Assembly (NCBI GenBank): GCA_021234155.1
Contig: JAJEKV010000133.1
Span: forward strand, 1,027,506 to 1,091,505
Direction: 5' to 3'
DNA length: 64,000 nt
Origin: Isoetes taiwanensis
Lineage: Eukaryota; Streptophyta; Lycopodiopsida; Isoetales; Isoetaceae
Each line of letters opens with the position of its first letter. The first letter of the stretch is position 1. The position numbers were made by a program, and so were the translations under genes. This document shows positions 6,941 to 64,000 of this stretch, piece by piece. A model generated the notes under the pieces. It searched no databases, was not told the origin of the DNA, and saw nothing but the letters and a program-made list of their open reading frames with translations.

Positions 6941-6944
6941 TTTA

Positions 6945-11280: not shown

Positions 11281-11289
11281 AGTTCATAA

Positions 11290-24900: not shown

Positions 24901-24904
24901 GACG

Positions 24905-38600: not shown

Positions 38601-38810
38601 CTTCTTTTGTTGCTCTAATTGTATGCTTTCTTTTTTCGATTTATCATTTTTTTTTATATGATGTTTCAAGCTTCTTATATCTTTCCGTTCCCTTCCACGG
38701 TTTTGTGTCCTCCTTCGTCTAACCCGAACCTCCTTTTGTTCCATGTCCTCTTCTATACCCTTCCATATATTTCCTCACATGTCTTTGTTAATAGCCCATT
38801 CAGCATCACT

Positions 38811-38990: not shown

Positions 38991-39069
38991 TTTCCAACAA
39001 GTTTGCAATTTGTATTGTGACAAATTAGCATCACATATAATAGTAGTTTAGTGATTGGTAGCATTTCTT

Positions 39070-40760: not shown

Positions 40761-40814
40761 CCTACATGAATTTAAGTAGAAATTCTGCCAGTAGAAATTC
40801 TGCCATTCTCATCT

Positions 40815-41584: not shown

Positions 41585-41977
41585 ACGGAGCAAAGAGAAT
41601 CAAGACACAACTATCTCTCTAGTGGACAGCTTATGGGATGAATTAGTGTATAGTTTCACCATGAAATACTGCATACTGGGCCAGCCAGAATAAGACTCTA
41701 GATTCTTTGAATTGGCAGGGAATTGAGATTACCAAATGTACTCATAGTTGTTCGCAATGGGAATAATTTGTTTGTCTTGATGTTATTGTGCTTTTTAGTA
41801 ATTAATATTTAGGCCCATAACATTTACCTATGTTTGCGTTAGTTAGGGCCCGAAGGGCCCAAATTTTTTTTTAATATAACAGTCAACACACAACTACCAT
41901 TAACATTATTAACACAAACCATTGCATTTAACACATTTTAATTAAAATCCCCCTTAAACCCCCTTTGGTTTGGGTGC

Positions 41978-42232
41978 ATATTCACACGGGGGGTTATGTA
42001 GGGCAGCCAGAGCCCCAAAAATATATTTACAATACATGTACAAAATTAACACCATTAAGTACATTCTTTCAAACCTTATAGTATTTTACAAACCTTAATA
42101 TATAGTACACAAAAACTTGTACATGCATACCCCACAAACGAGGATCACTATGTATGGTCCAGATCTTAGAATAAGGGCAAATATGCCCATCCGACAGCTC
42201 TCGTTGCCTGGAGTAACCCCCCGTGTGAATAT
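41978..42232. repeat. 255-bp element with perfect 19-bp inverted repeats
   Basis: The 19 bases at 41978-41996 (atattcacacggggggtta) are the exact reverse complement of 42214-42232. The match continues more weakly inward (agggcagccagagc against caggcaacgagagc). The interior is AT-rich and non-coding. I could not identify a target-site duplication on either side. It may be a miniature inverted-repeat element or the stem of a longer hairpin; class unknown. A GC palindrome, gggcccgaagggccc, lies just upstream at about 41846. Confidence 0.6.
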
Positions 42233-42239
42233 ATGTTTC

Positions 42240-42945
42240 TACAGGTGCTTTCTCATTCTGGCAACCTCTCTTCAGCTCAATCTACTGGAGTTCAGAAACT
42301 TCCAGTCAAGGTAAGAGGGTTTTGCATTAGTCTATAATCTCCCTTAATTGTTATTATCTCTGCATGTAGATTCAAGTCGATTCATTTCTTTATTATCTAC
42401 CTAACAAAGGATTTGTATATTGTTGTTAGGCATGGCAATTCATTTAGGCATCCCAAACCCTTCAAACCTGCAGCATTCTTTCTTCTAAAAAATAAGGCAT
42501 GCAGAGTGTATCCTAATAGCTTCAACACCACCAATACTTTTTAAAAACTGAACTCTTAAAGCATCTTATGATCTGGTCATTGCACTTGGGAATTGCATGT
42601 GGCGCTGTCTAATTATGAAATGATGGATTTTATCCATCTTGGAACAAACGCAAAAATATACATGAACCATTTTCTGCCCACCAATGACTTGAATGCCATT
42701 GTTTATCAATAAATATGAAGCAAGAAACAACTACGCATGATATAGGTAAATGCACACTTAAGTTGGAGAGCTTGGATTTTTTGATCTGGTTGGGACATAG
42801 AACCTATCAAGCTCAAATTAAAACCTTAAGTTAAAATACTCTAGAAAATGGCTCATATGATTCTTCTCCAAGCTTGCATATGACAATAAGCAACATTTAT
42901 ATGACATGCATCGCATAGTCAGTTCACAGGATATCCTTAGCGTGA
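42240..42945. other. Intergenic, nothing recognised
   Basis: No open frame or repeat of note lies between the inverted-repeat element and the LINE. Confidence 0.3.
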
Positions 42946-42949
42946 TCAA

Positions 42950-45092: not shown

Positions 45093-45099
45093 AAATATG

Positions 45100-46150
45100 G
45101 TGGCTGCTTTAAAATGCATGAAGCTAGAATAAACTAGGCATTTGTACGTCATGAGGCACAACGTTTGAATTTCGGGTATTGTAACCAATTTATGTCCTCT
45201 GCACTTTCAGACAGATTGTCAATTGCTAATGCATTGAAACACTTCATGGATATTTTTGTCAGTTGCTAATGCATTGAAAAATTTCATGGACATTTTTGGT
45301 CGTTTCTGTGGGATAAAAGGCTGATGCCAGTGTGTACATAACATTTCAAAATTTCAAGGACACTTTTTATTGTTCTTGTGGGATAAAAGGCTGATGCTAG
45401 TTGTGTATATAATTGGGTGAGTTCAATTACATTTTTCTTATAACGTCTTTAAAAATGTCAATGTAAATTATTTGACTTTCCTAAAAGCATTAGAAACAAA
45501 AACCGACCATGTCCCTCAATCCCTCCAATCTACAATACAATTTTCAAATTTGTAAGGCACTGACATGCTAATAAACACATAGTTTCAAATAAAGCATTAA
45601 ATTCATGCCAATAAATTTTAATATGCCATTGAGGTGGTGGCAAATCTCAGATCATTTAGCTTCGCATTCTTATATTTGTAGTTGAAAAAGTATTTGTAGA
45701 GCCCTTTGATTTCCTTGGATTGAATATGCCTACTAAACTTTGTTTCAATAAGCATGCTAGGTGCATGAATTTGATGGTGGAAAATCTATATTCCAATTTA
45801 CTTCTCACCTTGAAATATTGTTTATAGCGTCACTGAATAAATTGGTCTCTACTCAAAACATTATGTGAAATTTCAATGCTCCAGTTTACTTCTCACCTTA
45901 AGTACATACTCAATGGTCGAAGAAATTGGTCTTTGCTCTACAAATAAAAATTACACAACATTTTAGACCAACATGTTTGGCGTACACAAATTCTTACGAT
46001 TGATATTGTTAACATCTATGTTCTGCAACCCTACCCCACTACATAAACGATTACTGCTAAGTCTGTCAATGTTGTGCTCCACTGCTCCTACAATCTCCAA
46101 ATGCAAAAATTCATGCTCCAAATCTTTTTTAGTATTAGACCACCACCTCT
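45100..46150. other. AT-rich intergenic sequence with short repeats
   Basis: No gene is recognisable. At 45210-45295 gctaatgcattgaaa and a following ttcatgga.attttt block occur twice, about 45 bp apart. At 45310-45410 a block with gtgggataaaaggctgatgc occurs twice, about 75-80 bp apart. These are short, diverged tandem duplications. A Helitron end follows at 46.19 kb, so this stretch may be Helitron interior. Confidence 0.45.
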
Positions 46151-46164
46151 CAAATTGTTACTAG

Positions 46165-46192
46165 GCCCGACAACGCCGGGCACCATAACTAG
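46165..46192 (+). mobile_element. Helitron 3' terminus (plus strand)
   Basis: A GC-rich hairpin (gcccg, 7-base loop, cgggc) at 46165-46181 is followed by seven bases and CTAG at 46189-46192, then T. This is the defining Helitron 3' end: a short hairpin near a terminal CTRR, with a T in the flank. The terminal bases are nearly identical to the independent end at 61894-61921. The body of the element must lie to the left; its 5' TC end could not be located by eye, so only the terminus is annotated. Confidence 0.7.
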
Positions 46193-46549
46193 TATATGGT
46201 TAATTTGCATTCAACGAAACCATGCATATCGCATTAAATAAGCTTACTGTGTTCATAATTTCTTTCTCCTTCTTGGGTTTTATCCTAAAAATGATTCCTA
46301 GGCTTGTCCTCCCATTAACATAGTCCAGGGCTTTATGCTCCCATAAAAAGACAAGCCATTTAAAACTGAAATAATAAATTCTAAGAAATGAACATCTGGC
46401 TGCTACAAAAATTATAGCATTTAAAGTCGCGATATGAATTGCAGTAATCAGATCTGTCCTGCATATTATTCCATCATATTGAAGGCGATATGAGAGGTAT
46501 GTCTGCATATTATTAGATTCAGCCATATGCACTGTTCAAATATTCAGGA

Positions 46550-46740
46550 TATCACAAGAAATCAGAAATGTACGTCAGCTAAATAATTTTTATTGCAGCA
46601 ATCAGAAATGTACATCAGCTAAAGAATTTGTAAGCTAACTAACAACAGCTAATTTATAAATGTACAATAGCTAAAGTATTTGTACAGCAGCTAATTCATA
46701 AATGAACAGCTAATTCAAAAATGTACGGTGTATTTCAAAG
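46550..46740 (+). repeat. Short tandem repeats on an 'agctaa...aaatgtac' motif
   Basis: The motif (a/t)cagctaa followed by an AT-rich spacer and aaatgtac or aatgaac recurs about seven times between 46550 and 46735 with variable spacing. It lies immediately downstream of the Ptta-like exons read on the minus strand. Subterminal arrays of this sort are common in CACTA elements, but no terminal repeat was found here. Confidence 0.5.
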
Positions 46741-46777
46741 CAAGACATGAATGACACTAATTTAAAGCAAAACCAAC

Positions 46778-47154
46778 CTTTTTAGGAACAAAGCCCTTTG
46801 CGATCATCTTCTTTCTCCATGTTTCATACCCGCCTTTCGCTGTAATTTCCTGTAGCAAATCCTCTGTTGGCATGGATCCCCAATCCTGGAACTGCATTAT
46901 ATTTTAAACATCCACAACAATTAAAAAAAGGGTATTTGAAAGATGTCAAAATAATTATAAAACTTACAAACTTAGTTTTAATAGACATTATGCCTCCAGA
47001 ACCAGTCTGTTGCTGCCTTTTGCGTTTGGAAGCAGCATCTCTTTGCCGTTGATAATTCCTACTACAAAGCTCAACAAACCTCTTCCAACTTTCATCATCG
47101 ACGTGCATTGGTTTCGGCGCATTGTTGTTTCGCACATTCCTCCGAAGATTTTCT
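46778..47154 (-). CDS. Ptta/En-Spm-like transposon protein, two exons (remnant)
   Basis: On the minus strand two exons can be joined in phase. Exon A, 47154-46968, follows an acceptor (gaaatctatag) and ends in AAGTTT before GTAAGT. Exon B, 46891-46778, follows atgcag and ends in AAAAAG before GTTGG. Exon A encodes PMHVDDESWKRFVELCS, then NYQRQRDAASKRKRQQQTGS. This resembles the W..FV...S...Q......R..Q...TG core of the plant Ptta/En-Spm transposase family. Exon B gives FQDWGSMPTEDLLQE and ETWRKKMIAKGF. Both exons are open and phase 0 at the shared intron. Upstream, 47530-47345 has a second acidic open stretch that may be an earlier exon. I see no start, stop or terminal repeats, so this is a fragment. 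Family assignment is moderate. Confidence 0.5.
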
Positions 47155-47676
47155 CTATAGATTTCAACCAAAAAAAATGTAAGAGTTCAATCATAACAAA
47201 AAACCAGAACTGTTCTAACCATGGGCCTTCACTACCAAGATATATGATTCTGAATTTTTCAAATCTGACGAAGACCCTAATCTGGAATCTTCATGTTCAT
47301 TCATACTGTTTTAATCAAGTAATGCGCCCTTGCTTTTATATACATCAACACTGACCATGCTTAAACAGATCAACAAGTGGTCCATTTAAGTCTATAAAAC
47401 GGATCAACAAATGCAAATTCCTTTTCCGTTTCCTCATATGAATTTGGCAGCTCTTCATTAGATTCCTCCTTAGTGACTTGTGGAGTGAAGTGTTGTAAAG
47501 CACACCCCTATAATTGGAAAAAGAAGACAAACGATGCCAATGTTACTTGCACGTTTGTCCCATATCAGCCTTGTCCCATATCAGCCTTGCAGTAGCTGAT
47601 ATAGCTTTTCTGACAGCAAAATCAGAATACATGTGCCATCATAAGAGACAATAGATTATTGTAATAAACAAATCCT

Positions 47677-47826
47677 CATGTGCTTGTTATAAACCATTTC
47701 AGTGCATATATTGTTCAGATATGCTAATGCCCATGAATAGGCAGTAATAATGAATTGAGAATCTGTTATAACATAACCCACAACACCTCCTAATATGACC
47801 AAAAGAGAACCAGTAGAAGCCAGTTG
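47677..47826 (-). pseudogene. Nucleotide-sugar-transporter-like gene fragment
   Basis: About 50 codons on the minus strand encode SLLVILGGVVGYVITDSQF, then ITAYSWALAYL and TEMVYNKHM. This matches the consecutive transmembrane segments of plant Golgi nucleotide-sugar transporters of the GONST-like group (drug/metabolite transporter superfamily): a VxxGGVxYxxTDxxF loop, TAYxWAxxYL, and a xxxxVYxKHM end. A full transporter has ten helices and over 300 residues. Here homology stops right after KHM, and upstream it fades beyond VQLASTG. It is an isolated fragment, either one exon of a dead gene or host sequence captured by the neighbouring Helitron or CACTA elements. No function is expected. Confidence 0.6.
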
Positions 47827-49037
47827 GACCATCAGATTAAGAGGAAAGAGAGCAAACAACAGACTGCATGTGTAACACAATGATAAGGGGTGATGCATGT
47901 TTCCCAATTGATGTCTGAGATGGGTGCTACCTAAGTCGGAGCTTTCCTAATTTCTAGGATTCTTCATGGCCTGATCTGCGATTCAGTGACATCTTCCTTG
48001 TCTATAAAAATCTTCCTAGATTCGCAGTTGACTATGGCTAATCTTCAATGATTTAGACAGAGGAATGATGGTCAAAGAATTGTACTAAATAAGTCGTTGT
48101 ACCTGAAACTCAGATTTATGTTATTGCATTTTCATCACCTCTTGATAAGTAACTCTAATGTATTCCTACAATTATGATATGTGTAAGTAGTTCCAAATTT
48201 GCTTCTACCTGAGGCCAAGTATTTTTGACATTAACTAGGATGAAAGAAGCAGGCAGAACTGTTTAGGGAACTAGGCAGTTAACTAGGATTAACCTTTAGG
48301 GAACACAGGTTATGGAAAGAAGCAGGCAGAACTGTTTTTTCAATGGCAAGATAATGGCCAAACTGAAGAAGAATAATATGCCATGGATATGGGAATATTT
48401 GGCCACCTTATACATTGAAAGAATTTTCGAAAAGAGAGAACTTGTTAATTTTTCAACATGCAAGTTGCATCTATCTGTCAAATTTCAGAGACTTACCTTA
48501 CTAGTCCAGAAATGGCAACAGGCCAGGTAAAAGCTAAGAACTGAAACACAATACAAAAGTTGATCATCTTGGATAAAGAAGGACCATCGAACAAGATGAA
48601 CGACGAGCCTTTGTTCTGCATATGGAATTGTGAGAAATAATATCGAGACTTATTGACTAATTTTCAGAAAAGCTTTTCTCACTGGCAGATACTTAGAGAA
48701 AATTAAACTTCTTAGCGTGGTAAGTCTGAACTAAATATACAGGTAAGTCTGAACTAAATATATAGTAAGTACGGCTGTTAGGCCACGGTGGCAGGTTAGC
48801 CATGCAAGGGGCCCATAGTAAGTGCAAAACTGATACAAATTCTAATTTTAACAAATTCTAATAGTAAGGGGCCAAACTGATACAATTCTAATTTATCCCT
48901 CCATTGCATTGGTAAGGCAATACTCAATCATGTCAGATGCAGCCAGCATAGAAATCATTATCTTAACTATAGAATAATGTGCCATGGATATGGGAATATT
49001 TGGCCACAAAAGTAGTAATTATGACAGACCTCTAGTG

Positions 49038-49240
49038 TTACCATCGCTTCTTCAAGAATTTTATTACATCCATCTCAGATAGCCCATCGCCAAACTGCTC
49101 GTAGATGTACTTCAACGTCCTCTGCAGATGACGTGGCTTTATTTCCTTGAAAAGTTTGTCGACCTCCCTACAATGTGTTTTCAGGGCATCCGATGCTTTT
49201 TGCTCGAATTCACATTCCGCATCATTCCTCAACAATTCCC
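49038..49240 (-). pseudogene. Unknown minus-strand gene, last exon, module copy 1
   Basis: The 65-codon open stretch ends in FLKKRW and a TAA. It encodes ECEFEQKASDALKTHCREVD, then KLFKEIKPRHLQRTLKYIYE and QFGDGLSEMDVIKF, a charged, helical sequence that I do not recognise. In copies 2 and 3 the exon follows an acceptor ending tttataaag. In this copy that acceptor region differs by two bases, and a hAT element sits about 24 bp further upstream in the intron. The protein sequence is nearly identical in all three module copies, differing by one residue (Asn here, Asp in the others). Confidence 0.45.
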
Positions 49241-49263
49241 CTTTATGAAAGCATACATGTATT

Positions 49264-50245
49264 CAGGGCTCGAATTTGACGGCTTTCATGCCTGTTTTTT
49301 GGATTTTTGCCCGTCAAAACAGGTGAAAAAAAAATTCGTATGGCAAATGAAAAGCCACAGTTGGGCAATCGCCTGTCATAGAGAAGGGCACCTACAAGAC
49401 ATATTCGTCATTTGAAAGGCTACGAATAGAGAAATGCCCGTCATTTTTCTTGCTATATATCTTTATAAATTTTAAACATTTATATTATTATTGATTATAA
49501 ATCTATACAGTATACAATGATACAATTACATATACCAAATTTCCAATGATCCCTCCCCCCATCCCATTTTTTTAACCTTTTATACATTATAGCTATAGTT
49601 ATTAGATGCAATCATGCAACCATTAACAATCACGAACCTAAATTTATGCTAAATTGCTAATTCAAGAAAAGTAGATCCTAAATCTATGCTAACAATTCGA
49701 AATTTTTTTCTTCGAATCTTGATTCTTCTTGATGCCCGCCCGCCCACTGCCCGACCCGCCTAAGATCAATCAGAGATTCATCAGAGTTCTTGGCTGGCTT
49801 CTTGCTTGTGCTGCAATCACAATGCTGAATTTGTGCTACCAATGCCGAATCGAATGCTGCTGATCTGATCATGCTGGTACGAATCAAACGAATCACACGA
49901 AATGCTGGTACGAATCAGACGAAATGCTGGTATGAAGCGAAGCAAAGGAGAGGAATGCCACTTGAATAAGTTTTTGTGATTGATTTTAAACTTTAAACTA
50001 TTATTTTTATTTCAGTAGTATTTATGTAAGAACAACATTATGTATTTGATGAACTTAAATGGAAATATGCTTTGTTTTATGTATCTACCTATGTTTTTTA
50101 GGAAAAAAACTGGTTTCTGTCATTTTAAATTTTTTTTATTGCATTTGAAAGGCTTGAATTTAGGAACTTCCTGTCACGCGAAAGTTGTAAAATTATTTTG
50201 CCCGTCCCTGGAAAATTAAGGGCGGACCGTCAAATTCGAGCACTG
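49264..50245. mobile_element. Non-autonomous hAT element, 982 bp
   Basis: The element begins CAGGGCTCGAATTTGACGG and ends with the reverse complement of CAGTGCTCGAATTTGACGG, so its terminal inverted repeats match at all but one of 19 positions. It is flanked by a perfect 8-bp duplication, catgtatt, at 49256-49263 and 50246-50253. Both features are diagnostic of the hAT superfamily. Copies 2 and 3 of the surrounding module have a single catgtatt (55299-55306 and 60344-60351) with no insert, which proves the boundaries. Inside, gacgg/ccgtc words cluster near both ends, as is usual for subterminal transposase-binding repeats. No transposase frame is present; the longest frame is 70 codons. Confidence 0.95.
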
Positions 50246-51309
50246 CATGTATTCAAACATAAACTCAGAATTCATTGTAAGCAAAATATCTAAAGCATAA
50301 GCTGGTCTTTGATACGCTGCCCAATAAGAACAGGTCTATAAAGTCTTTTTTATATTTAGTTGCAGCCTTATCATTCTTTTGCATAAAATCTAGTTGCAGG
50401 CTTATCATAGGAAAACATAAACAAACCTAAATCAATAACAAATTTAAGAGCCTGTGGGAGGACTATCAATCCAGTTCATGGTGTTGTAGGATCACTTTGC
50501 AGTTGGAAATTGGCAATTGTGCCAAGCTAGCAGGTGGAGACATTACTAAGTGGTGGGTTCTTAAGCACTTCTTCCAGCCCCTTCAAGATCTGGCGAGATC
50601 CCCCTTCATGCAAATGCATGTGAATGATCAAGTTCTAGGCGGGGAGGCGAAAAGACTTCCCCTGTTGGAAGGGATCTCTTCCATCTTCCTTTGAGAAGAC
50701 CCGTAGAAGCTCTGCCCGGGAAGAAGCACCGAGATAAAGGATCTTTGGCGAGTCCGATCCACCGAGAGATAATGCTCTCTGCACTGGGAAGAAGCACCGG
50801 GACAAAAGAAAGCCGGATCCGTTTTGATCTTAGTATTAATCACCGAAGTTTCAAAAATGAAATGCTCTCAACATGAGACCTCTTCGATGAGAACAAATAG
50901 CCATCTAAAGTTTGGACCTGACCTTAGCAGCCTCTAATGTGTCCTCTGTAACTTTTCATAAACCTTTTGAGGCCAAAATCAGGTGTGGAAGCCCTTCTTC
51001 TTCTACCATATGTGCCCATAGCTGACATTGTTCTCAAGAATCTACCACCGAATTTGACACTGTTCGCTCCAACTATAGCTTCATTTGTCGTCTTCAGGAG
51101 GATCCCAAAGTTGGAAGATCAAAGCCAAAACGTTAGAGCAACTTGTTAACATGCATATACTAGTCTAGGCTTATAACTCTTTCGTGTTTTTGTCATTCAC
51201 ATTTTTGCAGCACGTGTCCTACAGGCTTCAGCTGTAACAAGAGTCCATTTGAAGGCAGTACCTAATAAACTCCCAAAATTGCAACAAACTAGCCCTAAAG
51301 ATCTAAAAC

Positions 51310-52167
51310 CTACAAGCTAAACAACCATCTATATGCAGCCCCTAGCACCATAGCTAGCAAATCCTTCATTTGCTCATTCTTCGATAACTTTCTGAACTGA
51401 ATGTTGTAAGAGAGATCAATGTCCTCTGAAATGTCTTTGTCAACTTCAATATCGTCTTGATCAGTCAGCTCATCATGTTCATCTGACTCATCATGTTCAT
51501 CTGATGACGATGAACAGCTAAGCACCACATGCCTATTTGTGGTGACATGATGCTTTTTTGAAAATTTGCGTGCTCCTTATGCAGATGTTTCAGCATTATT
51601 GGAAGAATTATGGGATTGGCGATGTTTCTTTGATCTGCATGTGTATTAATAACTCAAGTTAGAACAGTTCTGGTTTTGAATGTAATGAACAGTTCTGGGG
51701 TTTTGACAGAGTAGAAAAATAAGATAAGAACATTAAATAGAAAACTAGAGAAAAAGTATGGAAAAATGCATATCATGCTTACTTTAATGTAGCATAATGC
51801 ATATCAGTGGATTTAAACCACTATGAAGCAACTCCTAAACCGTGTAATAAACCAAATAGCAGCAGAAAATGTTCTAATATTTAGGTAAACTATAGCTTAC
51901 CTCTCTTTGTGCTTCTTTCCCTTTTCAATATTCCTCTCCTGTTCATTTCTTGATGGCTTGAAGGATGCATTTGAATCATCTCCTTCTTGAGTTCTTCGCA
52001 CCCGATTTTCTAACTCTGTGATCAACGCACCTAAGATATCCTCAGGAACATTGGCAAGGAAAGTGGACAATCGATCTGCATTGGACGCCTCTGTGGCTAG
52101 GCCTTTGCCTTTATCAGATCATTGCCTTTGTCAGATCCATTGCCTTTATTAGATCCATTCGCAGACA
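51310..52167 (-). pseudogene. Unknown minus-strand gene, two upstream exons, module copy 1
   Basis: Exon 1 (52167-51901) follows gtctttcag. After a shared 1-bp deletion in the NGSDKGN repeat it reads LATEASNADRLSTFLANVPE, then DILGALITELENRVRRTQEG, and ends GKKHKE plus AG before GTAAGC. Exon 2 (51634-51310) follows acatgcag and continues in phase as RSKKHRQSHNSSNNAE. It then meets a TAA and resumes with a Ser/Asp/Glu-rich stretch (SSSSDEHDESDEHDELTDQD) and a C-terminal KLSKNEQMKDLLAMVLGAAY. The in-phase junction and the serine/acidic nuclear-protein-like composition suggest a once-real gene. I do not recognise the family. The stop and frameshift recur in other copies, so the damage predates the duplication. 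Confidence 0.45.
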
Positions 52168-52801
52168 CTGAAAGACGGATAAACAACGGTTATATTCCAA
52201 AACTGGAAACACCTCCAAGAAACAAGGGATGAGCAAAACGAATTTGATTTACTTGTAGATGAATGAATCAGCGAGCTCGAGAGCAACAGAGACATAGAAG
52301 ATAGAGGCCAATAGAGATATAGGAGATGTAGGACAATGGCAAGACTCGGCCATGAAGTTGGATCTGGCGCCAAAGTGGTATGATGATCTATCGCGCCCTT
52401 TTTCCTGTTTTTTTTTTTCTTGTTGTTTTTTTACTTTCGGATCCTTGTGCTGTGCGGGTTGTTTACCATACCTAGATCCATAATGAAATGGAAAATGAAA
52501 AAAAAAAAAGTTGCTTTTTACTTTCGATTTTACCATGGCAATATTTTTGGGTTTTTGGGGATCGATAGCTTACAATGAAATATGAACATGGGTCTTGTCC
52601 ATTGATTCCGTTTTGAAATTTCAAATGAAATATGAACATGGGTCTTGTCTATTGGATCCCATTTTAAATGTAAAAATGAATAGGTTGCTTTCTATTTTTA
52701 GTTTTTTTGGGTCATTAGATCCATTTCTAAATCTCAATTGAAATGTTGTTTAATACTTATTGAATTCTTTTTTTTTAGGCAATATAGGTTTTGTTTACTA
52801 G

Positions 52802-54103
52802 ATGCATTTGCAAATGTCGGATGAAATGTCGAGCTCGAGACTAGTAGCTACTGGCGAGTGGAACGATTGTTTGCCGTGCCGTGGCTAGGTCATCTTCCGC
52901 AATATCCCCTTCATCAAATTCATCATCTTCCTCCCACGAAAATATAGAAAAAAGGGCAAGAAGAGCCCGACGAAGTTCTCTATCTTAGAGGCACTTGTTG
53001 GTGCAACAAGTGTAATGGCAAGCACTGTTGTTTCATATCGCGTTATTTGGATCATGAAGCAAAGTATGGAATATGTCGCAATGTCGGCCTAGGCAATTTG
53101 ATGAAGAAAATAACCTTGAACATGACACAAATATTGTGAGTGTTTCATAAGCCTTATCTTTCTTCCTTTTTGTTTTTATTTGTTCTAAATGGGAGGAAAA
53201 TGTTGAGTTTCTTCATCGTTTGTAACGTGTATTGTGTATCTTCATTCTTCCATAATATTCACTTCTTATTCATCTTTATGTGGCCATATAGTCACCTAGT
53301 GAAGAGTCTAGCATGCATAGTACTTTTGTTGGTGAGGAGGCAATCCACGATATGATCACAAAATTTTTTCCAACAAGCCAGGAAGCCAATAATGATGAAA
53401 ATAATGATGATGCCAATGAAGTAGATGATGAATCATGCATTGATAAGGCAACATATCTCCATAATGAGGCAAGCACGCCATTGTTCCCAAATGCCCATTA
53501 TCTCTCGCCTTGCTACATGTATGCTTATTCTAAATCTCCAACACAAAGCGGGTTGGAGCAACAACAATGTCCAGAACTTTTTCGGTATGTACATGCAATT
53601 CATTCTTTTGTTTTAGTGTGGGTGGGGCTTCCTATACAGACATGCTTACTTGATGTTTTTATAGTTTGCTTGATAAGATATTACCCGATGGCCATTGTCT
53701 TCCAAAATCTAGGCGGGAAGCTAGAGAGCTATTACGATCCTTGGGACTGGAATATAATGTCGTGCATGCATGTGTCAATGATTGTATCTTATTTCGTAAA
53801 GATTAGGCAAACCATGACTCATATCCAATATGTAAAGAGGCACGTTGTGAAAAGGGTAGGAAGACAAAGGTGGCAAGAAAGGTGTTACGTCACATGCCTA
53901 TAATTCCTCGCATTCGTCATATGTTTCGATCACCAACCCTAGCTGATTTCATGGATTACCATGCACGGCATCGTAGCACTGATGGAAAAATGAGAATACC
54001 TGCTGATGGGGCTTTGTGGAAATATATAGAAGATAAGTGGCCCATATTTGCATTAGAACCTCGCAATATTAGACTTGGGCTAGGGATTGATGGTACTAAA
54101 TAA
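52802..54103 (+). pseudogene. CACTA (En/Spm) tnp2-type transposase fragment, module copy 1
   Basis: This is the same three-exon arrangement as at 57840-59146. Exon 1 contains GTCWCNKCNGK, the N-terminal Cys cluster typical of tnp2 proteins. Exon 2 starts SPSEESSMHSTFVGEE. Exon 3 contains LPDGHCLPKSRREARELLRS, VNDCILFRKD, then RKVLRHMPIIPRIRHMFRSP and ALEPRNIRLGLGIDG. In this copy the exon 2 donor reads cggtatg instead of caggtatg, and several frames are broken where CAG/CTG words were altered. The protein stops at GIDG, exactly at the module junction, well before the catalytic core expected of a full tnp2 transposase. It is a non-functional 5' part. Confidence 0.85.
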
Positions 54104-55080
54104 GTCGTTGTACCTGAAACTCAGATTTATGTTGTTGCATTTTCATCACCTCCTAGCCTTGCCAGTTGAGCATAGTGGCATTTGCAGATAAGTAACTCTA
54201 ATGTATTCCTACAATTATGATATGTGTAAGTAGTTCCAAATTTGCTTCTACCTGAGGCCAAGTATTTTTGACATTAACTAGGATGAAAGAAGCAGGCAGA
54301 ACTGTTTAGGGAACTAGGCAGTTAACTAGGATTAACCTTTAGGGAATACAGGTTATGGAAAAAGAAGGTGAATCGCTTTTTCAATGGCAAGATAATGGCC
54401 AAACTGAAGAAGAATAATATGCCATGGATATGGGAATATTTGGCCACCTTATACATTGAAAGAATTTTCGAAAAGAGAGAACTTGTTAATTTTTCAACAT
54501 GCAAGTTGCATCTATCCATCCAAATTCGAGACTTACCTTACTAGTCCGAAATGGCAACAAAGCGGAGTAAAAGCTAAGAACTGAAACACAATACAAAAAG
54601 TTGATCATCTTGGATAAAGAAGGACCATCGAACAAGATGAACGCATTTGAGCCTTTGTTCTATATGGAATTGTGAGAAATAATATCGAGACTTATTGACT
54701 AATTTTCAGAAAAGCTTTTCTCACTGGCAGATACTTAGAGAAAATTAAACTTCATAGCGTGGTAAGTCTGAACTAAATATACAGTGGTAAGTCTGAACTA
54801 AATATATAGTAAGTAACTGTTAGGGCCACAAGGCAGGTGTTAGCCATGCAAGGGGCCCATAGTAAGTAAAAACTGATACAAATTCTAATTTTAACAAATT
54901 CTAATAGTAAGGGGCCAAACTGATACAATTCTAATTTATCCCTCCATTGCATTGGTAAGGCAATACTCAATCATGTCAGATGCAGCCAGCATAGAAATCA
55001 TTATCTTAACTATAGAATAATGTGCCATGGATATGGGAATATTTGGCCACAAAAGTAGTAATTATGACAGACCTCTAGTG

Positions 55081-55283
55081 TTACCATCGCTTCTTCAAGA
55101 ATTTTATTACATCCATCTCAGATAGCCCATCGCCAAACTGCTCGTAGATGTACTTCAACGTCCTCTGCAGATGACGTGGCTTTATTTCCTTGAAAAGTTT
55201 GTCGACCTCCCTACAATGTGTTTTCAGGGCATCCGATGCTTTTTGCTCGAATTCACATTCCGCATCATCCCTCAACAATTGCC
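55081..55283 (-). pseudogene. Unknown minus-strand gene, last exon, module copy 2
   Basis: The reading is GQLLRDDAECEFEQ followed by the same charged helical sequence as in copy 1, ending FLKKRW and TAA. A good acceptor, tttataaag, lies immediately upstream. The exon is open and identical to copy 3 at the protein level. The family is not recognised. Confidence 0.45.
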
Positions 55284-56354
55284 CTTTATAAAAGCATACA
55301 TGTATTCAAACATAAACTCAGAATTCATTGTAAGCAAAATATCTAAAACATAAAATTTGGTCTTTGATACGCCTAATAATAAGAAAGTCTATAAAGTCTT
55401 TTTATATTTAGTTGCAGCCTTATCATTCTTTTGCATAAAATCTAGTTGCGAGGCTTATCATAGAAAAACATAAACAAACCTAAAATCAATAACAAATTTA
55501 AGAGCCCTGTGGGAGGACTATCAATCCAACATGGTGTTGTAGGATCACTTTGCTTTGAAATTGGCAATTGTGCCAAGTCTGCGGAGGAGACGGTACTAAG
55601 TGGTGGGTTCTTAAGCACTTCTTCAGCCCCTTCAAGATCTGAGAAAAATCCCCCTTCATGCAAATGCATGTGAATGATCAAGTTCTAGACGGGAGGCGTA
55701 AAGACTTCCTAGTTGAAGGGGATCTCTTCCATCTTCCTTTGAGAAGACCCAAGAGAAGCTCGCCCGGGAAGAAGCACCGGAGATAAAGGATGCTGGCAGA
55801 GTCCGGATCCACCAGAGATAATGCTCTGCACCAGGAAGAAGCACCAGACAAAAGAAAGCTGGATCTGCTTTGATCTTAGTATTAATCACCCGAAGTTTCA
55901 AAAATGAAATGCTCTCAACATGAGACCTCTTCGATGAGAACAAAGAGACCATCTAAAGCTGGACCCCACCTTAGCAAAATCTAATGTGTCCTCTGTAACT
56001 TTTCATAAACCTTTTGAGGCCAAAATCAGGTGTGGAAGCCCTTCTTCTTCTACCATATGTGCCCATAGCTGACATTGTTCTCAAGAATCTACCACCGAAT
56101 TTGACACTGTTCGCTCCAACTATAGCTTCATTTGTCGTCTTCAGGAGGATCCCAAAGTTGGAAGATCAAAGCCAAAACGTTAGAGCAACTTGTTAACATG
56201 CATATACTAGTCTAGGCTTATAACTCTTTCGTGTTTTTGTCATTCACATTTTTGCGAGACGGTCCCATGTGCTTCATTGGAATAAGAGTCCATTTGAAGG
56301 CAGTACCTAATAAACTCCCAAAATTGCAACAAACTAGCCCTAAAGATCTAAAAC

Positions 56355-57205
56355 CTACAAGCTAAACAACCATCTATATGCAGCCCCTAGCACCATAGCT
56401 AGCAAATCCTTCATTTGCTCATTCTTCGATAACTTTCTGAACTGAATGTTGTAAGAGAGATCAATGTCCTCTGAAATGTCTTTGTCAACTTCAATATCGT
56501 CTTGATCAGTCAGCTCATCATGTTCATCTGACTCATCATGTTCATCCGATGACGATGAATGTTTTAAGCACCACATGCCTATTTGTGGTGACATGATGCT
56601 TTTTTGAAAATTTATGTGCTCCTTATGCGATGTTTCAAAGATTATTGGAAGAATTATGGGATTGGCGATGTTTCTTTTGATCCGCATGTGTATTAATAAC
56701 TCAAGTTAGAACAGTTCAATTTTGAATGTAATGAACAGTTCAGGGGTTTGACCAGTAGAAAAAATAAGATAAGAACATTAAATAGAAAAACTAGAGAAAA
56801 GTATGGAAAAATGCATATCATGCTTACTTTAATGTAGCATAATGCATATCGCTGGATTTAAACCACTATGAAGCAACTCCTAAAACCGTAATAAACCAAA
56901 TAGCAAAGAAAAATGTTCTAATATTTAGGTAAACTATAGCTTACCTCTCTTTGTGCTTTTTTCCTTTTTCAATATTCCTCTCCTGTTCATTTCTTGATGG
57001 CTTGAAGGATGCATTTGAATCATCTCCTTCTTGAGTTCTTCGCGACCCGATTTTCTAACTCCGATCAACGCACCTAAGATATCCTCGAACATTGGCAAGG
57101 AAAGTGGACAATCGATCCGCATTGGGCGCCCTCGTGGCTAGGCCTTTGCCTTTATCGATCATTGCCTTTGTCGATCCATTGCCTTTATTAGATCCATTCG
57201 CATAA
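56355..57205 (-). pseudogene. Unknown minus-strand gene, upstream exons, module copy 2
   Basis: This is equivalent to 51310-52167. The acceptor before exon 1 is altered here (the gcagacactgaaag of copy 1 reads cataatcgaag on the plus strand), and several CAG/CTG-derived changes break exon 1. Exon 2 keeps the Ser/Asp/Glu-rich stretch and the KNEQMKDLLAMVLGAAY end. The copy-1 frame is the better guide to the gene. Confidence 0.4.
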
Positions 57206-57839
57206 TCGAAGAGACGGATAAACAAATCTTATATTCCAAAAACCGGAAACACCTCCAAGAAACAAGGGATGAGCAAAAACGAATTTGATTTACTTGTAGA
57301 TGAATGAATCGGCCCGAGCTCGAGAGCAACAGAGACATAGAAGATAGAGGCCAATAGAGATATAGGAGATGTAGGACAATGGCAAGACTTCGGCCATGAA
57401 GTTGGATCTGGCGCCAAAGTGGTATGATGATCTATCGCCCTTTTTTCCTGCTTTTTTTTTCTTGTTGTTTTTTACTTTCGGATCCTTGTGTTTGCCGCGG
57501 GTTGTTTACCATACCTAGATCCATAATGAAATGGAAAATGAAAAAAAAAGTTGCTTTTACTTTCGATTTTACCATGGCAATATTTTTTGGGTTTTGGGGA
57601 CGATAGCTTACAATGAAATATGAACATGGGTCTTGTCCATTGATTCCGGTTTGAAATTTCAAATGAAATATGAACATGGGTCTTGTCTATTGGATCCCAT
57701 TTTAAATGTAAAATGAATAGGTTGCTTTCTATTTTTAGTTTTTTGGGTCATTAGATCCATTTCTAAATCTCAATTGAAATGTTGTTTAATACTTATTGAA
57801 TTCTTTTTTTTTCTAGGCAATATAGGTTTTGTTTACTAG

Positions 57840-59146
57840 ATGCATTTGCAAATGTCAGATGAAATGTCGAGCTCTGAGACTAGTAGCTACGACAGTGGGA
57901 ACGATTGTTTGCCGTGCCAGGTGGCTAGGTCATCTTCTGCAATATCCCCTTCATCAAATTCATCATCTTCCTCCCGACGAAAATATAGAAAAAGGGCAAG
58001 AAGAGACCCGGCAAGTTTCTCTATCTTCGCATGAGGCACTTGTTGGTGCAACAAGTGTAATGGCAAGACTGTTGTTTCATATCGCGTTCGACTGGATCAT
58101 GAAGCAAAGTATGGAATATGTCGCAGTCGGCCTAGGCAATTTGATGAAGAAAATAACCTTGAACATGACACAAATATTGTGAGTGTTTCATAAGCCTTAT
58201 CTTTCTTCCTTTTTGTTTTTATTTGTTCTAAATGGGAGGAAAATGTTGAGTTTCTTCATCGTTTGTAACGTGTATTGTGTATCTTCATTCTTCCATAATA
58301 TTCACTTCTTATTCATCTTTATGTGGCCATATAGTCACCTAGTGAAGAGTCTAGCATGCATAGTACTTTTGTTGGTGAGGAGGCAATCCACGATATGATC
58401 ACAAAATTTTTTCCAACAAGCCAGGAAGCCAATAATGATGAAAATAATGATGATGCCAATGAAGTAGATGATGAATCATGCATTGATAAGGCAACATATC
58501 TCCATAATGAGGCAAGCACGCCATTGTTCCCAAATGCCCACGTATCTCGCCTTGCTACATGTATGCTTATTCTAAATCTCCAACACAAAGCGGGTTGGAG
58601 CAACAACAGTGTGTCCGAACTTTTCAGGTATGTACATGCAATTCATTCTTTTGTTTTAGTGTGGGTGGGGCTTCCTATACAGACATGCTTACTTGATGTT
58701 TTTATAGTTTGCTTGATAAGATATTACCCGATGGCCATTGTCTTCCAAAATCTAGGCGGGAAGCTAGAGAGCTATTACGATCCTTGGGACTGGAATATAA
58801 TGTCGTGCATGCATGTGTCAATGATTGTATCTTATTTCGTAAAGATTAGGCAAACCATGACTCATATCCAATATGTAAAGAGGCACGTTGTGAAAAGGGT
58901 AGGAAGACAAAGGTGGCAAGAAAGGTGTTACGTCACATGCCTATAATTCCTCGCATTCGTCATATGTTTCGATCACCAACCCTAGCTGATTTCATGGATT
59001 ACCATGCACGGCATCGTAGCACTGATGGAAAAATGAGAATACCTGCTGATGGGGCTTTGTGGAAATATATAGAAGATAAGTGGCCCATATTTGCATTAGA
59101 ACCTCGCAATATTAGACTTGGGCTAGGGATTGATGGTACTAAATAA
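57840..59146 (+). pseudogene. CACTA (En/Spm) tnp2-type transposase fragment, module copy 2
   Basis: This is the best copy. Exon 1 (57840-58178) starts MHLQMSDEMSSSETSS, carries a serine-rich run and, after a frameshift, the CWCNKCNGK cluster and LDHEAKYGICR, ending in ATT before GTGAGT. Exon 2 (58335-58627), after ccatatag, runs from SPSEESSM through an acidic stretch to LNLQHKAGWSNNSVSELF, ending CAG before GTATGT. Exon 3 (58708-59146) restores the phase: LLDKILPDGHCLPKSRREAR, VNDCILFRKD, an in-frame TAG at 58847-58849, ANHDSYPICKEARC, RKVLRHMPIIPRIRHMFRSP, and RNIRLGLGIDGTK before TAA. Known tnp2 proteins have the same order: W.N..F..LL, LP.G..LP.S, NDC.L, CP.C, K.LR..P.IPR..R.F, RN.RLGL..DG. 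It is cut at the module junction and cannot be active. Confidence 0.9.
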
Positions 59147-60125
59147 GTCGTTGTACCTGAAACTCAGATTTATGTTGTTGCATTTTCATCACCTCCTAGC
59201 CTTGCCAGTTGAGCATAGTGGCATTTGCAGATAAGTAACTCTAATGTATTCCTACAATTATGATATGTGTAAGTAGTTGCAAATTTGCTTCTACCTGAGG
59301 CCAAGTATTTTTGACATTAACTAGGATGAAAGAAGCAGGCAGAACTGTTTAGGGAACTAGGCAGTTAACTAGGATTAACCTTTAGGGAATACAGGTTATG
59401 GAAAGAAGCAGGCAGAACTGTTTTTTCAATGGCAAGATAATGGCCAAACTGAAGAAGAATAATATGCCATGGATATGGGAATATTTGGCCACCTTATACA
59501 TTGAAAGAATTTTCGAAAAGAGAGAACTTGTTAATTTTTCAACATGCAAGTTGCATCTATCTGTCAAATTTCAGAGACTTACCTTACTAGTCCAGAAATG
59601 GCAACAGGCCAGGTAAAAGCTAAGAACTGAAACACAATACAAAAGTTGATCATCTTGGATAAAGAAGGACCATCGAACAAGATGAACGACGAGCCTTTGT
59701 TCTGCATATGGAATTGTGAGAAATAATATCGAGACTTATTGACTAATTTTCAGAAAAGCTTTTCTCACTGGCAGATACTTAGAGAAAATTAAACTTCATA
59801 GCGTGGTAAGTCTGAACTAAATATACAGTGGTAAGTCTGAACTAAATATATAGTAAGTACGGCTGTTAGGCCACAGTGGCAGGTTAGCCATGCAAGGGGC
59901 CCATAGTAAGTGCAAAACTGATACAAATTCTAATTTTAACAAATTCTAATAGTAAGGGGCCAAACTGATACAATTCTAATTTATCCCTCCATTGCATTGG
60001 TAAGGCAATACTCAATCATGTCAGATGCAGCCAGCATAGAAATCATTATCTTAACTATAGAATAATGTGCCATGGATATGGGAATATTTGGCCACAAAAG
60101 TAGTAATTATGACAGACCTCTAGTG

Positions 60126-60328
60126 TTACCATCGCTTCTTCAAGAATTTTATTACATCCATCTCAGATAGCCCATCGCCAAACTGCTCGTAGATGTACTT
60201 CAACGTCCTCTGCAGATGACGTGGCTTTATTTCCTTGAAAAGTTTGTCGACCTCCCTACAATGTGTTTTCAGGGCATCCGATGCTTTTTGCTCGAATTCA
60301 CATTCCGCATCATCCCTCAACAATTGCC
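60126..60328 (-). pseudogene. Unknown minus-strand gene, last exon, module copy 3
   Basis: The protein is identical to copy 2 (GQLLRDDAECEFEQ ... FLKKRW, TAA), with the acceptor tttataaag. It has no neighbouring hAT element; the empty target is at 60344-60351. Confidence 0.45.
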
Positions 60329-61439
60329 CTTTATAAAAGCATACATGTATTCAAACATAAACTCAGAATTCATTGTAAGCAAAATATCTAAAACATAAGC
60401 TGGTCTTTGATACGCTGCCCAATAAGAACAGGTCTATAAAGTCTTTTTTATATTTAGTTGCAGCGTTATCATTCTTTTGCATAAAATCTAGTTGCAGGCT
60501 TATCATAGAAAAACATAAACAAACCTAAATCAATAACAAATTTAAGAGCCTGTGGGAGGACTATCAATCCAGTTCATGGTGTTGTAGGATCACTTTGCAG
60601 TTGGAAATTGGCAATTGTGCCAAGCTGCAGTGGAGACGGTACTAAGTGGTGGGTTCTTAAGCACTTCTTCAGCCCCTTCAAGATCTGTAGCGAAATCCCC
60701 CTTCATGCAAATGCATGTGAATGATCAAGTTCTAGACGGGGAGGCAGAAAGACTTCCTAGTTGGAAGGGGATCTCTTCCATCTTCCTTTGAGAAGACCCA
60801 GTAGAAGCTCTGCCCAGGAAGAAGCACCAGAGATAAAGGATGCTGGCAGAGTCTGGATCCACCAGAGATAATGCTCTGCACCAGGAAGAAGCACCAGGAC
60901 AAAAGAAAGCTGGATCTGTTTGATCTTAGTATTAATCACCCAGAAGTTTCAAAAATGAAATGCTCTCAACATGAGACCTCTTCTGATGAGAACAGCAGCC
61001 ATCTAAAGCTGGACCTGACCTTAGCAGCCTCTAATGTGTCCTCTGTAACTTTTCATAAACCTTTTGAGGCCAAAATCAGGTGTGGAAGCCCTTCTTCTTC
61101 TACCATATGTGCCCATAGCTGACATTGTTCTCAAGAATCTACCACCGAATTTGACACTGTTCGCTCCAACTATAGCTTCATTTGTCGTCTTCAGGAGGAT
61201 CCCAAAGTTGGAAGATCAAAGCCAAAACGTTAGAGCAACTTGTTAACATGCATATACTAGTCTAGGCTTATAACTCTTTCGTGTTTTTGTCATTCACATT
61301 TTTGCAGCACGTGTCCTACAGGCTTCAGCTGTAACAAGAGTCCATTTGAAGGCAGTACCTAATAAACTCCCAAAATTGCAACAAACTAGCCCTAAAGATC
61401 TAAAACCTACAAGCTAAACAACCATCTATATGCAGCCCC

Positions 61440-61733
61440 TAGCACCATAGCCAACCAAAATCCTTCATTTGCTCATTCTTCGATAACTTTCTGAACTGAA
61501 TGTTGTAAGAGAGATCAATGTCCTCTGAAATGTCTTTGTCAACTTCAATATCGTCTTGATCAGTCAGCTCATCATGTTCATCTGACTCATCATGTTCATC
61601 TGATGACGATGAACAGCTAAGCACCACATGCCTATTTGTGGTGACATGATGCTTTTTTGAAAATTTGCGTGCTCCTTATGCAGATGTTTCAGCATTATTG
61701 GAAGAATTATGGGATTGGCGATGTTTCTTTGAT
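61440..61733 (-). pseudogene. Unknown minus-strand gene, acidic exon, module copy 3
   Basis: The exon follows acatgcag, has the same internal TAA as the other copies and the SSSSDEHDESDEHDELTDQD stretch. The last codons differ from copies 1 and 2: the reading ends KNEQMKDFGWLWC because of a small change near 61450. The upstream exon of the gene is missing because the Helitron cuts the module at 61893. Confidence 0.4.
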
Positions 61734-61925
61734 CTGCATGTGTATTAATAACTCAAGTTAGAACAGTTCTGGTTTTGAATGTAATGAACAGTTCTGGGGT
61801 TTTGACAGAGTAGAAAAATAAGATAAGAACATTAAATAGAAAACTAGAGAAAAAGTATGAAAAAATGCATATCATGCTTACTTTAATGTAGCACTAGTAA
61901 TGGTGCCCAGCGTTGATGGGCATAC

Positions 61926-62395
61926 TTTGAGAGCCTAAAAATGTTTTGGGCCACAATGAGAAAGCATGCCCAGAATATGCTCGTTCTGTTATTCTTACTT
62001 TTGTAATTGTTGTGCGCGTAGTAGGAACGATGCATTTATTTGCAAGACTCTACCTGTTATTTTATGAAATCTTTAGCATGAGTGAACATTAGAATGGGAG
62101 GGAACACGCTTTGGGCATAATTTGAGAGCCTAAAAATGTTTTGGGCCACAATGAGAAAGCATGCCCAAAATATGCTCGTTCTGTTATTCTTATTTTTGTA
62201 ATTGTTGTGCGCGTAGTAGGAACGATGCATTTATTTGCAAGACTCTACCTGTTATTTTATGAAATCTTTAGCATGAGTGAACATTAGAATGGGAGGGAAC
62301 ATTTGTTAGAGAATCAAGCACTCTACTTATGAAATCTTTAGCATGAGTGAACATTAGAATGGGAGGGAACATTTGTTAGAGAATCAAGCACTCTA
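61926..62395 (+). repeat. Tandem duplications inside the Helitron end (195-bp and 70-bp periods)
   Basis: A block starting tttgagagcctaaaaatg at 61926 is repeated almost perfectly at 62121 (195 bp later). The end of the block, gaaatctttagcatgagtga and onward, is repeated again 70 bp later (62261 and 62331), together with gagaatcaagcactctact. Copies are almost identical, so the duplications are recent. They lie just inside the Helitron 3' end. Confidence 0.9.
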
Positions 62396-64000
62396 CTGCT
62401 ATTGAATAGGTGGTAGTAATTTTCTCAAGTGCTAACATGTGGAAAATCCTGTAGTAAATTTCTCAATCGCAAACATGTGAACAATGTAACAATGCAAGAA
62501 AGCTCTTTCAAAAATAGAATGGCCCTTTTTCGTTTCGTTGTTGTTGTCAGTACCTTCTCTTTTTATGATATTCCAAGTTTATCATACTTATTTTGCTTGT
62601 TGTATAGGTGTGGGATCAAGATTTTTTTACCGTTAAAAAGAAAAATGCAAAAGTAAGCTTACCATAGTTGTGAACTTGTGATTATATTATAATGTTTTGA
62701 TGTAAATCTTATTTGTCTTGTCGTCAGGAGGTCAGGAGTTTAACAGATCGATGGGAATGGCTGCTGATTTGTGCCTCGGTCTAGGGTGACATGACAAAAC
62801 TCAAGAAACCCAATCAACACTCTTGTGCCCTTAGAAATGGTTGAGCATATGAGTACCCAATGGATGACATAAAAGCAAAGTGTTGCAAAAATTGACGGAT
62901 GACACAATAGAGCAAACCATTAGAATTAAGCAATCATCCCAGCATCAAGATATGGTGTTAATGTCTGAAAATCTTTGTTTGAGATGTCTACCATCTTTTG
63001 ATCAACATGTAGACCCCAGCTCAAATGGCATCCTGACCAGACAGTCAGTTTAATCATATGGCAGTGTTAATATCTAGACCATCTTTGTTGACAATGTCAA
63101 AAATAGTACACAATGTTTTCCCTTTTGCAGTATCACCTTGAGGCCCCAAAGGCTCCTCCTGCTAATGAATTTTGGTGAATATCTCTGTCAAAAAATGTCA
63201 ACTTTGAAAATAGAATCTCAGCTTTCAATTTCCGCCATTACATGCTTTCCGTCATATCTTCTTGTTGGTGCTTTTCCTTTCTATCATGGCAAATGCCAAA
63301 AGAGTGCTATTAAGAATGATGTCAGTTCTCCACGAATCCATCGTTTCGAGATCATTGTATGGTGTGACCGCGGGCATGATCCACTTTGAGCTGGCATGTT
63401 TTGGCCAAAGAAGAACCGGTGCATTCATCTTCATTCATGAGTATCCTAGCGGCCGGACACACAATCTGTTCACCTTCTTTATATACATCAAGTCGAGGAT
63501 CTTAAGTTGTTTTCATGCACCAACACTATTGAGTCAACATGTACACTTCTGATACACATTAAAAAATGAGAAAAGTTCCTGCAAAACTGATAAAAATGAA
63601 CGAATAATCTTCATTTTTATTCTATTGCAAAGTTGATAAATCACCTTTTTTTGAAAGCTGCAAGTATATCTTAGCCAGTTGGGGTGTCATGACAAATTCT
63701 AGCAAGTCCTTGCACATGAGTACCATTATCTTAAATAGGCCCAAAACCAAACTTTACATGGAAATCTTAACACATTGAGTTGAACGCTTAACAGCTTCCA
63801 ATGATATTTCCCAACCTAGCACAATTGGGACATTACTTTTATGAGCGTGTCAAATAATTTGGCAAATAGAATCCTGCAACACAATGGACCATAAGTTTTG
63901 GCATAAAAATTTTGAAAAGGCCTGCATAATTATAATGACTTATCTGCAACAAAATATGCTTTGCTAGACTCCATGTTAAAGATTTGCATATGTGCAACCA
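62396..64000. other. Putative Helitron interior, no gene recognised
   Basis: The longest frames (83 codons at 63138 and 96 codons at 63262, both plus strand, overlapping in different frames) show no domain I know. The second reads SIVSRSLYGVTAGMIHFELA and FIFIHEYPSGRT, which looks mildly coding but cannot be assigned. Nothing resembling Rep or helicase motifs was seen. Confidence 0.3.

What the first reader, a model, noticed from the sequence alone, without database searches (positions are those of the whole stretch)
48082..61893. Head-to-tail 5-kb array pairing a tnp2 transposase fragment with an unrelated divergent gene
Two and a half copies of one module follow each other with identical junctions (gtactaaataag at 48082, 54093 and 59136). 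Each full copy joins the first half of a CACTA tnp2 transposase (plus strand) to a divergently oriented multi-exon gene of unknown family (minus strand), with roughly 0.6 kb between their starts. The tnp2 frame ends exactly at the junction, so the junction created or captured the truncation. CACTA elements are not usually amplified as local tandem arrays. The arrangement could be an unequal-crossover array, a rolling-circle product linked to the adjoining Helitron, or a composite capture unit.
Basis: partly seen in the sequence, partly recalled or inferred. Interest (0 to 1): 0.7.

Follow-up and report, generated by a model that had tools for sequence, protein, structure and literature searches.

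The report
Tandemly repeated transposon fragment, plant-type DNA
A roughly 5-kb piece that includes the broken start of a CACTA-type jumping-gene enzyme has been copied head to tail at one spot, probably by ordinary recombination errors, and was later hit by other jumping genes; this is a tidy example of a known kind of event and not a new system.

Summary
The array is real: copy 1 48082-54092, copy 2 54093-59135, copy 3 from 59136. Copy 1 is longer because of a 982-bp hAT-type insertion with an 8-bp target duplication. Copy 3 is not a half copy: it is cut at 61893/61894 by a minus-strand Helitron 3' end, in an A^T target intact in copies 1 and 2, so it probably continues beyond the window. 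The tnp2 part covers only positions 1-39 of the 213-position Transposase_21 profile, with an in-frame stop upstream. The minus-strand "gene" has no significant Pfam match. Raw divergence between copies (about 3-7%) is concentrated at CAG/CTG and CCG/CGG sites, mostly as multi-base or indel changes, which looks like sequencing error; isolated substitutions elsewhere number 3-10 per pair in 2,691 columns. All 8 that separate copies 1 and 2 lie in the first 1.6 kb. Best reading: one illegitimate tandem duplication inside a CACTA-related segment, then unequal crossing-over or conversion. No Helitron end or inverted repeat was found at the junctions, so rolling-circle origin is not supported. Ordinary; new member of a known kind.

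The parts
46193..48081 (.). left flank of the array, between a Helitron 3' end and the module; single copy in the window
   Evidence: no repeat of it of 80 bp or more in the self-BLAST; matches to the 2 kb before the junction at 54093 are 10-11 bp only
48082..54092 (+). module copy 1 (about 5.02 kb plus a 990-bp insertion including one target duplication)
54093..59135 (+). module copy 2 (5,043 bp)
59136..61893 (+). module copy 3, first 2,758 bp, interrupted by a Helitron
54053..54122 (+). novel junction 1: tnp2 fragment joined to module start
   Evidence: identical to junction 2 for 509 bp leftward and 143 bp rightward
59096..59165 (+). novel junction 2
53663..54104 (+). tnp2 5' fragment of copy 1; Transposase_21 profile positions 1-39 at about 53981-54097; in-frame TAG at 53804-53806
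58706..59147 (+). tnp2 5' fragment of copy 2; Transposase_21 profile positions 1-39 at about 59024-59140; in-frame TAG at 58847-58849
49264..50245 (.). 982-bp hAT-type insertion in copy 1 (inverted repeats CAGGGCTCGAATTTGACGG / CAGTGCTCGAATTTGACGG, 8-bp target duplication CATGTATT)
   Evidence: inverted repeat above chance (0 of 500 shuffles); empty site in copy 2 at 55283-55320
61894..64000 (-). Helitron: 3' terminus (CTAG at 61894-61897, hairpin 61904-61922) inserted in copy 3; its other end is not in view, so the end coordinate is the window's
   Evidence: A^T target intact in copies 1 and 2
46163..46192 (+). 3' terminus of a second, related Helitron (hairpin 46165-46181, CTAG at 46189-46192)

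Best explanation
A CACTA-related segment in plant-type repetitive DNA suffered one illegitimate tandem duplication: a point inside the tnp2 gene (about position 39 of the Transposase_21 region) was joined to a point about 5 kb upstream of it, by end joining or template switching with little or no homology. This made the junction. A later unequal crossing-over or conversion between the two copies gave a third copy and partly homogenised them. A hAT-type element entered copy 1 and a Helitron entered copy 3 after the duplication. Nothing here works as a unit: each tnp2 piece lacks most of its Transposase_21 domain. Shown: the array, the junctions, the two insertions, the truncated domain, the uneven distribution of clean differences.
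For: Junctions at 54093 and 59136 are base-identical while the left edge at 48082 has an unrelated flank, as expected for X-[AB][AB][AB...]. The left flank 46193-48081 and the 2 kb before the junction (52093-54092) show only 10-11 bp matches at E<=10, and directly before the shared GTACT they read AATT and GATG, so the first join was not made by long homology at these edges. Isolated substitutions away from CAG/CTG/CCG/CGG in 2,691 gap-free three-way columns: 7 private to copy 1, 3 to copy 3, 0 to copy 2. Between copies 1 and 2, 8 of 14 isolated substitutions in 4,949 columns are of this clean kind, and all 8 lie in the first 1.61 kb of the 5.04-kb module (7 of 8 in one 1,380-bp stretch, reached in 78 of 5,000 random placements), a mosaic expected from crossing-over or conversion between copies. 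The hAT-type insertion is in 1 of 3 copies and the Helitron in 1 of 3, with empty sites in the others that cover the place, so both came after the duplication.
Against: The right edge is outside the window, so the tnp2 continuation that the model predicts was not seen. Clean-variant numbers are small and the 1,380-bp scan length was chosen after seeing the data. Of the 8 clean copy 1/copy 2 sites, 4 lie beside a homopolymer and one (55699) is where copy 3 has a CAG, so some may be errors; without that one, 7 of 7 are in the first 1.38 kb. Copies 2 and 3 also differ at 2 clean sites in the left part, where the simple model wants them most alike, and at 1 in the right part; these may be later changes or errors. 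Copy number cannot be verified without reads; no genome is held. That the segment is one CACTA element was not shown.
Confidence: 0.75

Rival explanations
1. Assembly artefact: the true locus has one or two modules, and assembly of near-identical sequence or of two haplotypes inflated the number.
For: Counting only isolated substitutions away from CHG sites, the copies are about 99.6-99.9% alike (7, 10 and 3 in 2,691 columns), which is where assemblers fail; the window shows signs of uncorrected long-read errors.
Against: Three copies are told apart by a 982-bp insertion with target duplication, a 32-bp deletion and a Helitron insertion; the same novel junction occurs twice, so reads with the junction must exist unless it is chimeric.
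Confidence: 0.15
2. Rolling-circle (Helitron) product: the modules are tandem outputs of a Helitron that captured the fragment.
For: Two related Helitron 3' ends lie 1.9 kb left of the array (46192) and inside copy 3 (61894); 16 of their 18 terminal bases agree.
Against: Neither end is at a module junction; a search for hairpin plus CTRR within 100 bp of the left edge and of both junctions, both strands, found none; the end in copy 3 lies in an A^T target that is intact in copies 1 and 2, i.e. a later insertion.
Confidence: 0.04
3. The module is itself a mobile composite unit (tnp2 fragment plus captured gene) that moves or spreads as a block.
For: The tnp2 fragment and the minus-strand frames occur together in the two copies that are complete in view.
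Against: First and last 80 bp of the module show no inverted repeat above chance (150 of 500 shuffles reach the score for copy 2, 298 of 500 for copy 1; 0 of 500 for the hAT insertion as control); no other copy in the 64-kb window.
Confidence: 0.05

Closest known systems
Tandem arrays made from the internal (tnp2) region of CACTA elements, e.g. the Chenopodium satellite from the Jozin element (PMC7320549; abstract and passages seen)
   Same: A truncated tnp2 piece of a CACTA-like element becomes the start of a tandem array; the paper also cites satellite arrays made from the internal region of an En/Spm-like element (Atenspm).
   Different: There the start monomer is about 40 bp in satellite arrays; here the unit is about 5 kb in about three copies and holds much more than tnp2.
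Maize P1-wr cluster (PMC2686159; passages seen)
   Same: Nearly perfect multi-kb head-to-tail repeats, discussed with end joining, unequal crossing-over and conversion; the region also holds a hAT, CACTA elements and a Helitron end.
   Different: The unit is a Myb-like gene in eleven 12-kb copies; here the unit is a broken transposon fragment.
Kochia EPSPS tandem array (PMC6808082; passages seen)
   Same: Plant tandem multiplication with unequal crossing-over and a microhomology-mediated step proposed.
   Different: Amplified host gene that gives herbicide resistance, with a mobile element associated with the repeats; here no border element and no host gene identified.

Membership tests
CACTA (En/Spm) transposon | tnp2-type transposase | tested here: inconclusive
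   Transposase_21 positions 1-39 of 213 above the Pfam cut-off in copies 1 and 2; the rest of the domain is not in the module
CACTA (En/Spm) transposon | CACTA-type terminal inverted repeats bounding the module | tested here: not met
   My CACTA-end patterns hit the window only at 38811 (+) and 23094 (-), not at module ends; no inverted repeat above chance at module ends. A near copy of the 38811 end was sought with up to 6 mismatches on both strands and not found. The module is a fragment, not an element
CACTA (En/Spm) transposon | 3-bp target site duplication | not testable with these tools
   right end of any host element lies outside the window
Tandem array by unequal crossing-over | identical head-to-tail junctions between near-identical copies | tested here: met
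Tandem array by unequal crossing-over | mosaic distribution of variants among copies | tested here: inconclusive
   8 of 8 clean copy 1/copy 2 differences in the first 1.61 kb; small numbers, post hoc; 2 clean copy 2/copy 3 differences in the same part
Helitron (the insertion in copy 3, not the array) | 3' CTRR with upstream hairpin, insertion between A and T without target duplication | tested here: met
   CTAG at 61894-61897, hairpin 61904-61922, intact GTAGCA^TAATGC in copies 1 and 2. The hairpin also fits a + strand reading with CTAA further right, but the A^T site favours the minus strand. 5' end not seen; absence of target duplication untestable on one side
hAT (the insertion in copy 1, not the array) | 8-bp target duplication and CAGGG/CAGTG-type inverted repeats | tested here: met
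   the TIR type is recalled from general knowledge. Its 982 bp were not scanned for a transposase
Helitron tandem (rolling-circle) array | Helitron 3' end joined to 5' end at each junction | tested here: not met
   no hairpin plus CTRR within 100 bp of the left edge or of either junction; both known ends were found by the same search

The most novel reading that the evidence does not exclude
The repeated piece may carry a two-way promoter between the tnp2 start and the minus-strand frames; several copies of it with truncated tnp2 could give small RNAs that silence intact relatives in trans, a natural 'killer' locus of the kind recalled for maize Mu killer. The dense probable errors at CAG/CTG sites would fit heavy CHG methylation.
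Probability: 0.05. Interest if true: 0.5.

Novelty: new member of a known kind. Interest (0 to 1): 0.2.

Why it matters
It is a small case, with an order of events, of how a transposon fragment becomes a local tandem repeat, a step on the path from transposon to satellite DNA. It also shows a trap: in this sequence, differences between copies are largely linked to CAG/CTG and CCG/CGG sites and look like uncorrected read errors, so a naive divergence of 3-7% would make the array look far older than it probably is.

Tried and rejected
Rolling-circle origin: rejected because Helitron ends are not at the junctions. Composite mobile unit: no inverted repeat at module ends. The 12-mer as a functional junction motif: rejected, it is only the start of the module. 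Third copy as a truncated half copy: rejected (Helitron insertion). Divergence as age: rejected as read, because difference clusters touch CAG/CTG in 38 of 67, 20 of 37, 39 of 55 and 22 of 47 cases in four comparisons against 15.3, 8.4, 13.9 and 5.3 expected (0 of 500 random placements each). CCG/CGG is enriched too: 17, 11, 12 and 15 against 4.0, 1.4, 2.5 and 3.8 (0 of 500 each). Of 20 control tests (5 triplet pairs in 4 comparisons) 15 show nothing, but AGA/TCT was reached by only 7, 6 and 20 of 500 in three comparisons and GAC/GTC by 28 and 1 of 500 in two, so the controls are not flat. Gaps of 30 or more columns were dropped before these counts.

Led nowhere: identity of the minus-strand gene. 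Pfam six-frame scans of copy 2 (from 54201), left flank (44001-48200), 60001-64000 and 50246-54110 gave nothing significant but Transposase_21; matches below cut-off were Fer4_19 (0.23), ACDC (0.084), Mak10 (0.054) and Ribosomal_S30 (0.23), taken as chance. I thought that minus-strand frames in the left flank resemble a CACTA second gene (Transposase_24 type); that is from memory, and Pfam did not support it. Ten longer frames elsewhere in the window: 0 of 10 with a Pfam match at E<=0.1. Six-frame scans of 12001-16900, 28001-44270 less 32901-34500, found no Helitron protein; 1-12000, 16901-28000, 32901-34500 and 48201-50245 were not scanned in six frames. tRNA and Rfam (gathering) scans of the window: none. 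Relatives of the tnp2 fragment in viral contigs: 2 pattern matches, 0 confirmed. Helitron 5' ends: a motif scan gave hits left of 46192 but none that I could tell from chance, and none right of 61894. Paper searches: (2 papers; 2; 20, of which 12 listed; 0; 15, of which 8 listed; 6) on CACTA, tandem arrays and Helitrons; 24 (0), 34 (0) and 44 (26, of which 8 listed) on nanopore errors in plants. From PMC7501810 I saw passages; it says that self-trained basecalling models accounted for read errors caused by methylation in Klebsiella and suggests plant-specific models. That the errors here come from CHG methylation is inference.

Full report
Observation. The array is in the sequence. Self-comparison shows a direct repeat with a period of about 5.04-5.05 kb from 48079/48082 to 61893. 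The left sides of the last two agree for 509 bp and the right sides for 143 bp, so these are two copies of one novel junction. The first place, 48082, is different: its left flank is unrelated and its right side matches copy 3 for 41 bp before the first mismatch. It is the left edge of the array.

Copies. Copy 1 is 48082-54092 (6,011 bp), copy 2 54093-59135 (5,043 bp), copy 3 59136 onward. An alignment shows a 990-bp extra stretch and a 32-bp deletion in copy 1. The extra stretch is a 982-bp element at 49264-50245 with inverted repeats CAGGGCTCGAATTTGACGG / CAGTGCTCGAATTTGACGG, flanked by an 8-bp repeat CATGTATT, where copy 2 has the empty site; these are hAT features (recalled). Copy 3 ends at 61893. 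There the sequence continues CTAGTAATGGTGCCCAGCGTTGATGGGCA, which on the minus strand is a hairpin followed by CCATTACTAG, a Helitron-type 3' end; copies 1 and 2 read GTAGCA^TAATGC at this point, an intact A^T target. A similar terminus lies on the + strand at 46163-46192; 16 of the 18 terminal bases agree. So the 'half copy' is a copy split by a later insertion, and the rest should lie beyond the window.

Content. The + strand end of the module carries part of a tnp2 transposase: Transposase_21, positions 1-39 of 213, E 2.5e-07 in copy 2 and 2.4e-07 in copy 1, both above the curated cut-off. The junction cuts the domain there and the joined sequence gives GGT ACT AAA TAA. An in-frame TAG lies about 290 bp earlier in both copies. 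Neither complete copy in view can make a whole transposase. The minus strand has short frames (longest 116 aa in copy 2), with no Pfam family at E<=1 in copy 2 or in 60003-64000 and one chance-level match in copy 1. I cannot confirm that it is a gene or name it.

Errors versus divergence. Raw identities between copies are 93.4, 97.4 and 94.4% over the copy-3 span and 95.2% for the right part of copies 1 and 2, small gaps counted as differences. The differences gather at CAG/CTG: 38 of 67, 20 of 37, 39 of 55 and 22 of 47 clusters against 15.3, 8.4, 13.9 and 5.3 expected, with 0 of 500 random placements reaching each; CCG/CGG is enriched likewise; 5 of 20 control tests were also low (details under Tried and rejected). 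Copy 2 is the odd one in 36 of 73 three-way clusters, 26 of them at CHG-type triplets; of the 36, 24 are multi-base, 9 are 1-bp indels and 3 are single substitutions. Deamination would give single C-to-T changes, so uncorrected base-calling error at CHG sites is the better reading; no raw reads were available to test it. CAG/CTG is also the most under-represented trinucleotide pair of the window (observed/expected 0.77). Isolated substitutions in 2,691 three-way columns number 12: 7 private to copy 1 and 3 to copy 3, none at such triplets, and 2 private to copy 2, both at such triplets. Across the whole module copies 1 and 2 differ by 14 isolated substitutions in 4,949 columns, 6 at CHG-type sites and 8 not; the 8 lie at 54134-55699 in copy-2 coordinates, the first 1.61 kb, and none in the remaining 3.4 kb.

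Mechanism. The first duplication joined the tnp2 interior to a point 5 kb upstream. The 1.9 kb left of the array and the 2 kb left of the junction share only 10-11 bp matches, so long homology at those edges was not used; end joining or template switching is inferred. The other side of the breakpoint (the tnp2 continuation) is not in view, so microhomology could not be mapped in full. In a two-copy array P-Q, unequal crossing-over gives P, a hybrid with the left part of Q and the right part of P, then Q. Copy 2 has no private clean variant among the 12 isolated ones, sides with copy 3 at the 7 clean sites private to copy 1 (left part), and has no clean difference from copy 1 in the right 3.4 kb. 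This is what the model predicts. Against it, copies 2 and 3 differ at 2 clean sites in the left part and 1 in the right, and the numbers are small and the test post hoc. The two insertions are each in one copy and so came after the duplication.

Relation to known cases. Tandem repeats made from tnp2 or internal CACTA regions are known (PMC7320549, abstract and passages); multi-kb head-to-tail arrays discussed with end joining and unequal crossing-over are known in maize P1-wr (PMC2686159, passages) and, with a mobile element, in Kochia (PMC6808082, passages). Tandem repeats inside a CACTA element are described in Chenopodium (PMC8978399, passages). A grapevine CACTA family carries a gene piece in opposite orientation to the transposase (PMC2528002, passages). 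A search for 'internal tandem duplication' with CACTA and transposon found no paper; I make no claim of priority.

Verdict. Real, but ordinary: a local tandem duplication of a broken CACTA-related segment. Assembly inflation of copy number remains possible and cannot be tested here.

Noticed in passing
whole window; strongest at 8001-12000 and 20001-28000: CAG/CTG trinucleotides are under-represented in patches (observed/expected 0.43-0.55 in these 4-kb blocks, 0.61-1.19 in the others), which suggests patchy uncorrected long-read errors at CHG sites.
   Followed up: partly
38811-38920: CACTA-like terminus CACTACAAGAGAATGGGGGTTATAGTGTC with GACACTATA in both orientations nearby; could be the left end of a CACTA element. 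No partner found in the window.
   Followed up: partly
43560-43730 (+) and 37928-38185 (-): Weak reverse transcriptase (RVT_1) matches below the curated cut-off (E 0.0027 and 0.00054): probable decayed LINE-like remnants.
   Followed up: no
61917-62397: A 195-bp unit in two copies (98% alike), overlapped at its end by a 70-bp unit in two identical copies, right of the Helitron end.
   Followed up: no
32414-32551 (-): Weak match to Phosphate-induced protein 1 (Phi_1, E 9.8e-05, below the curated cut-off), with a further weak match in another frame next to it: a probable gene fragment.
   Followed up: no
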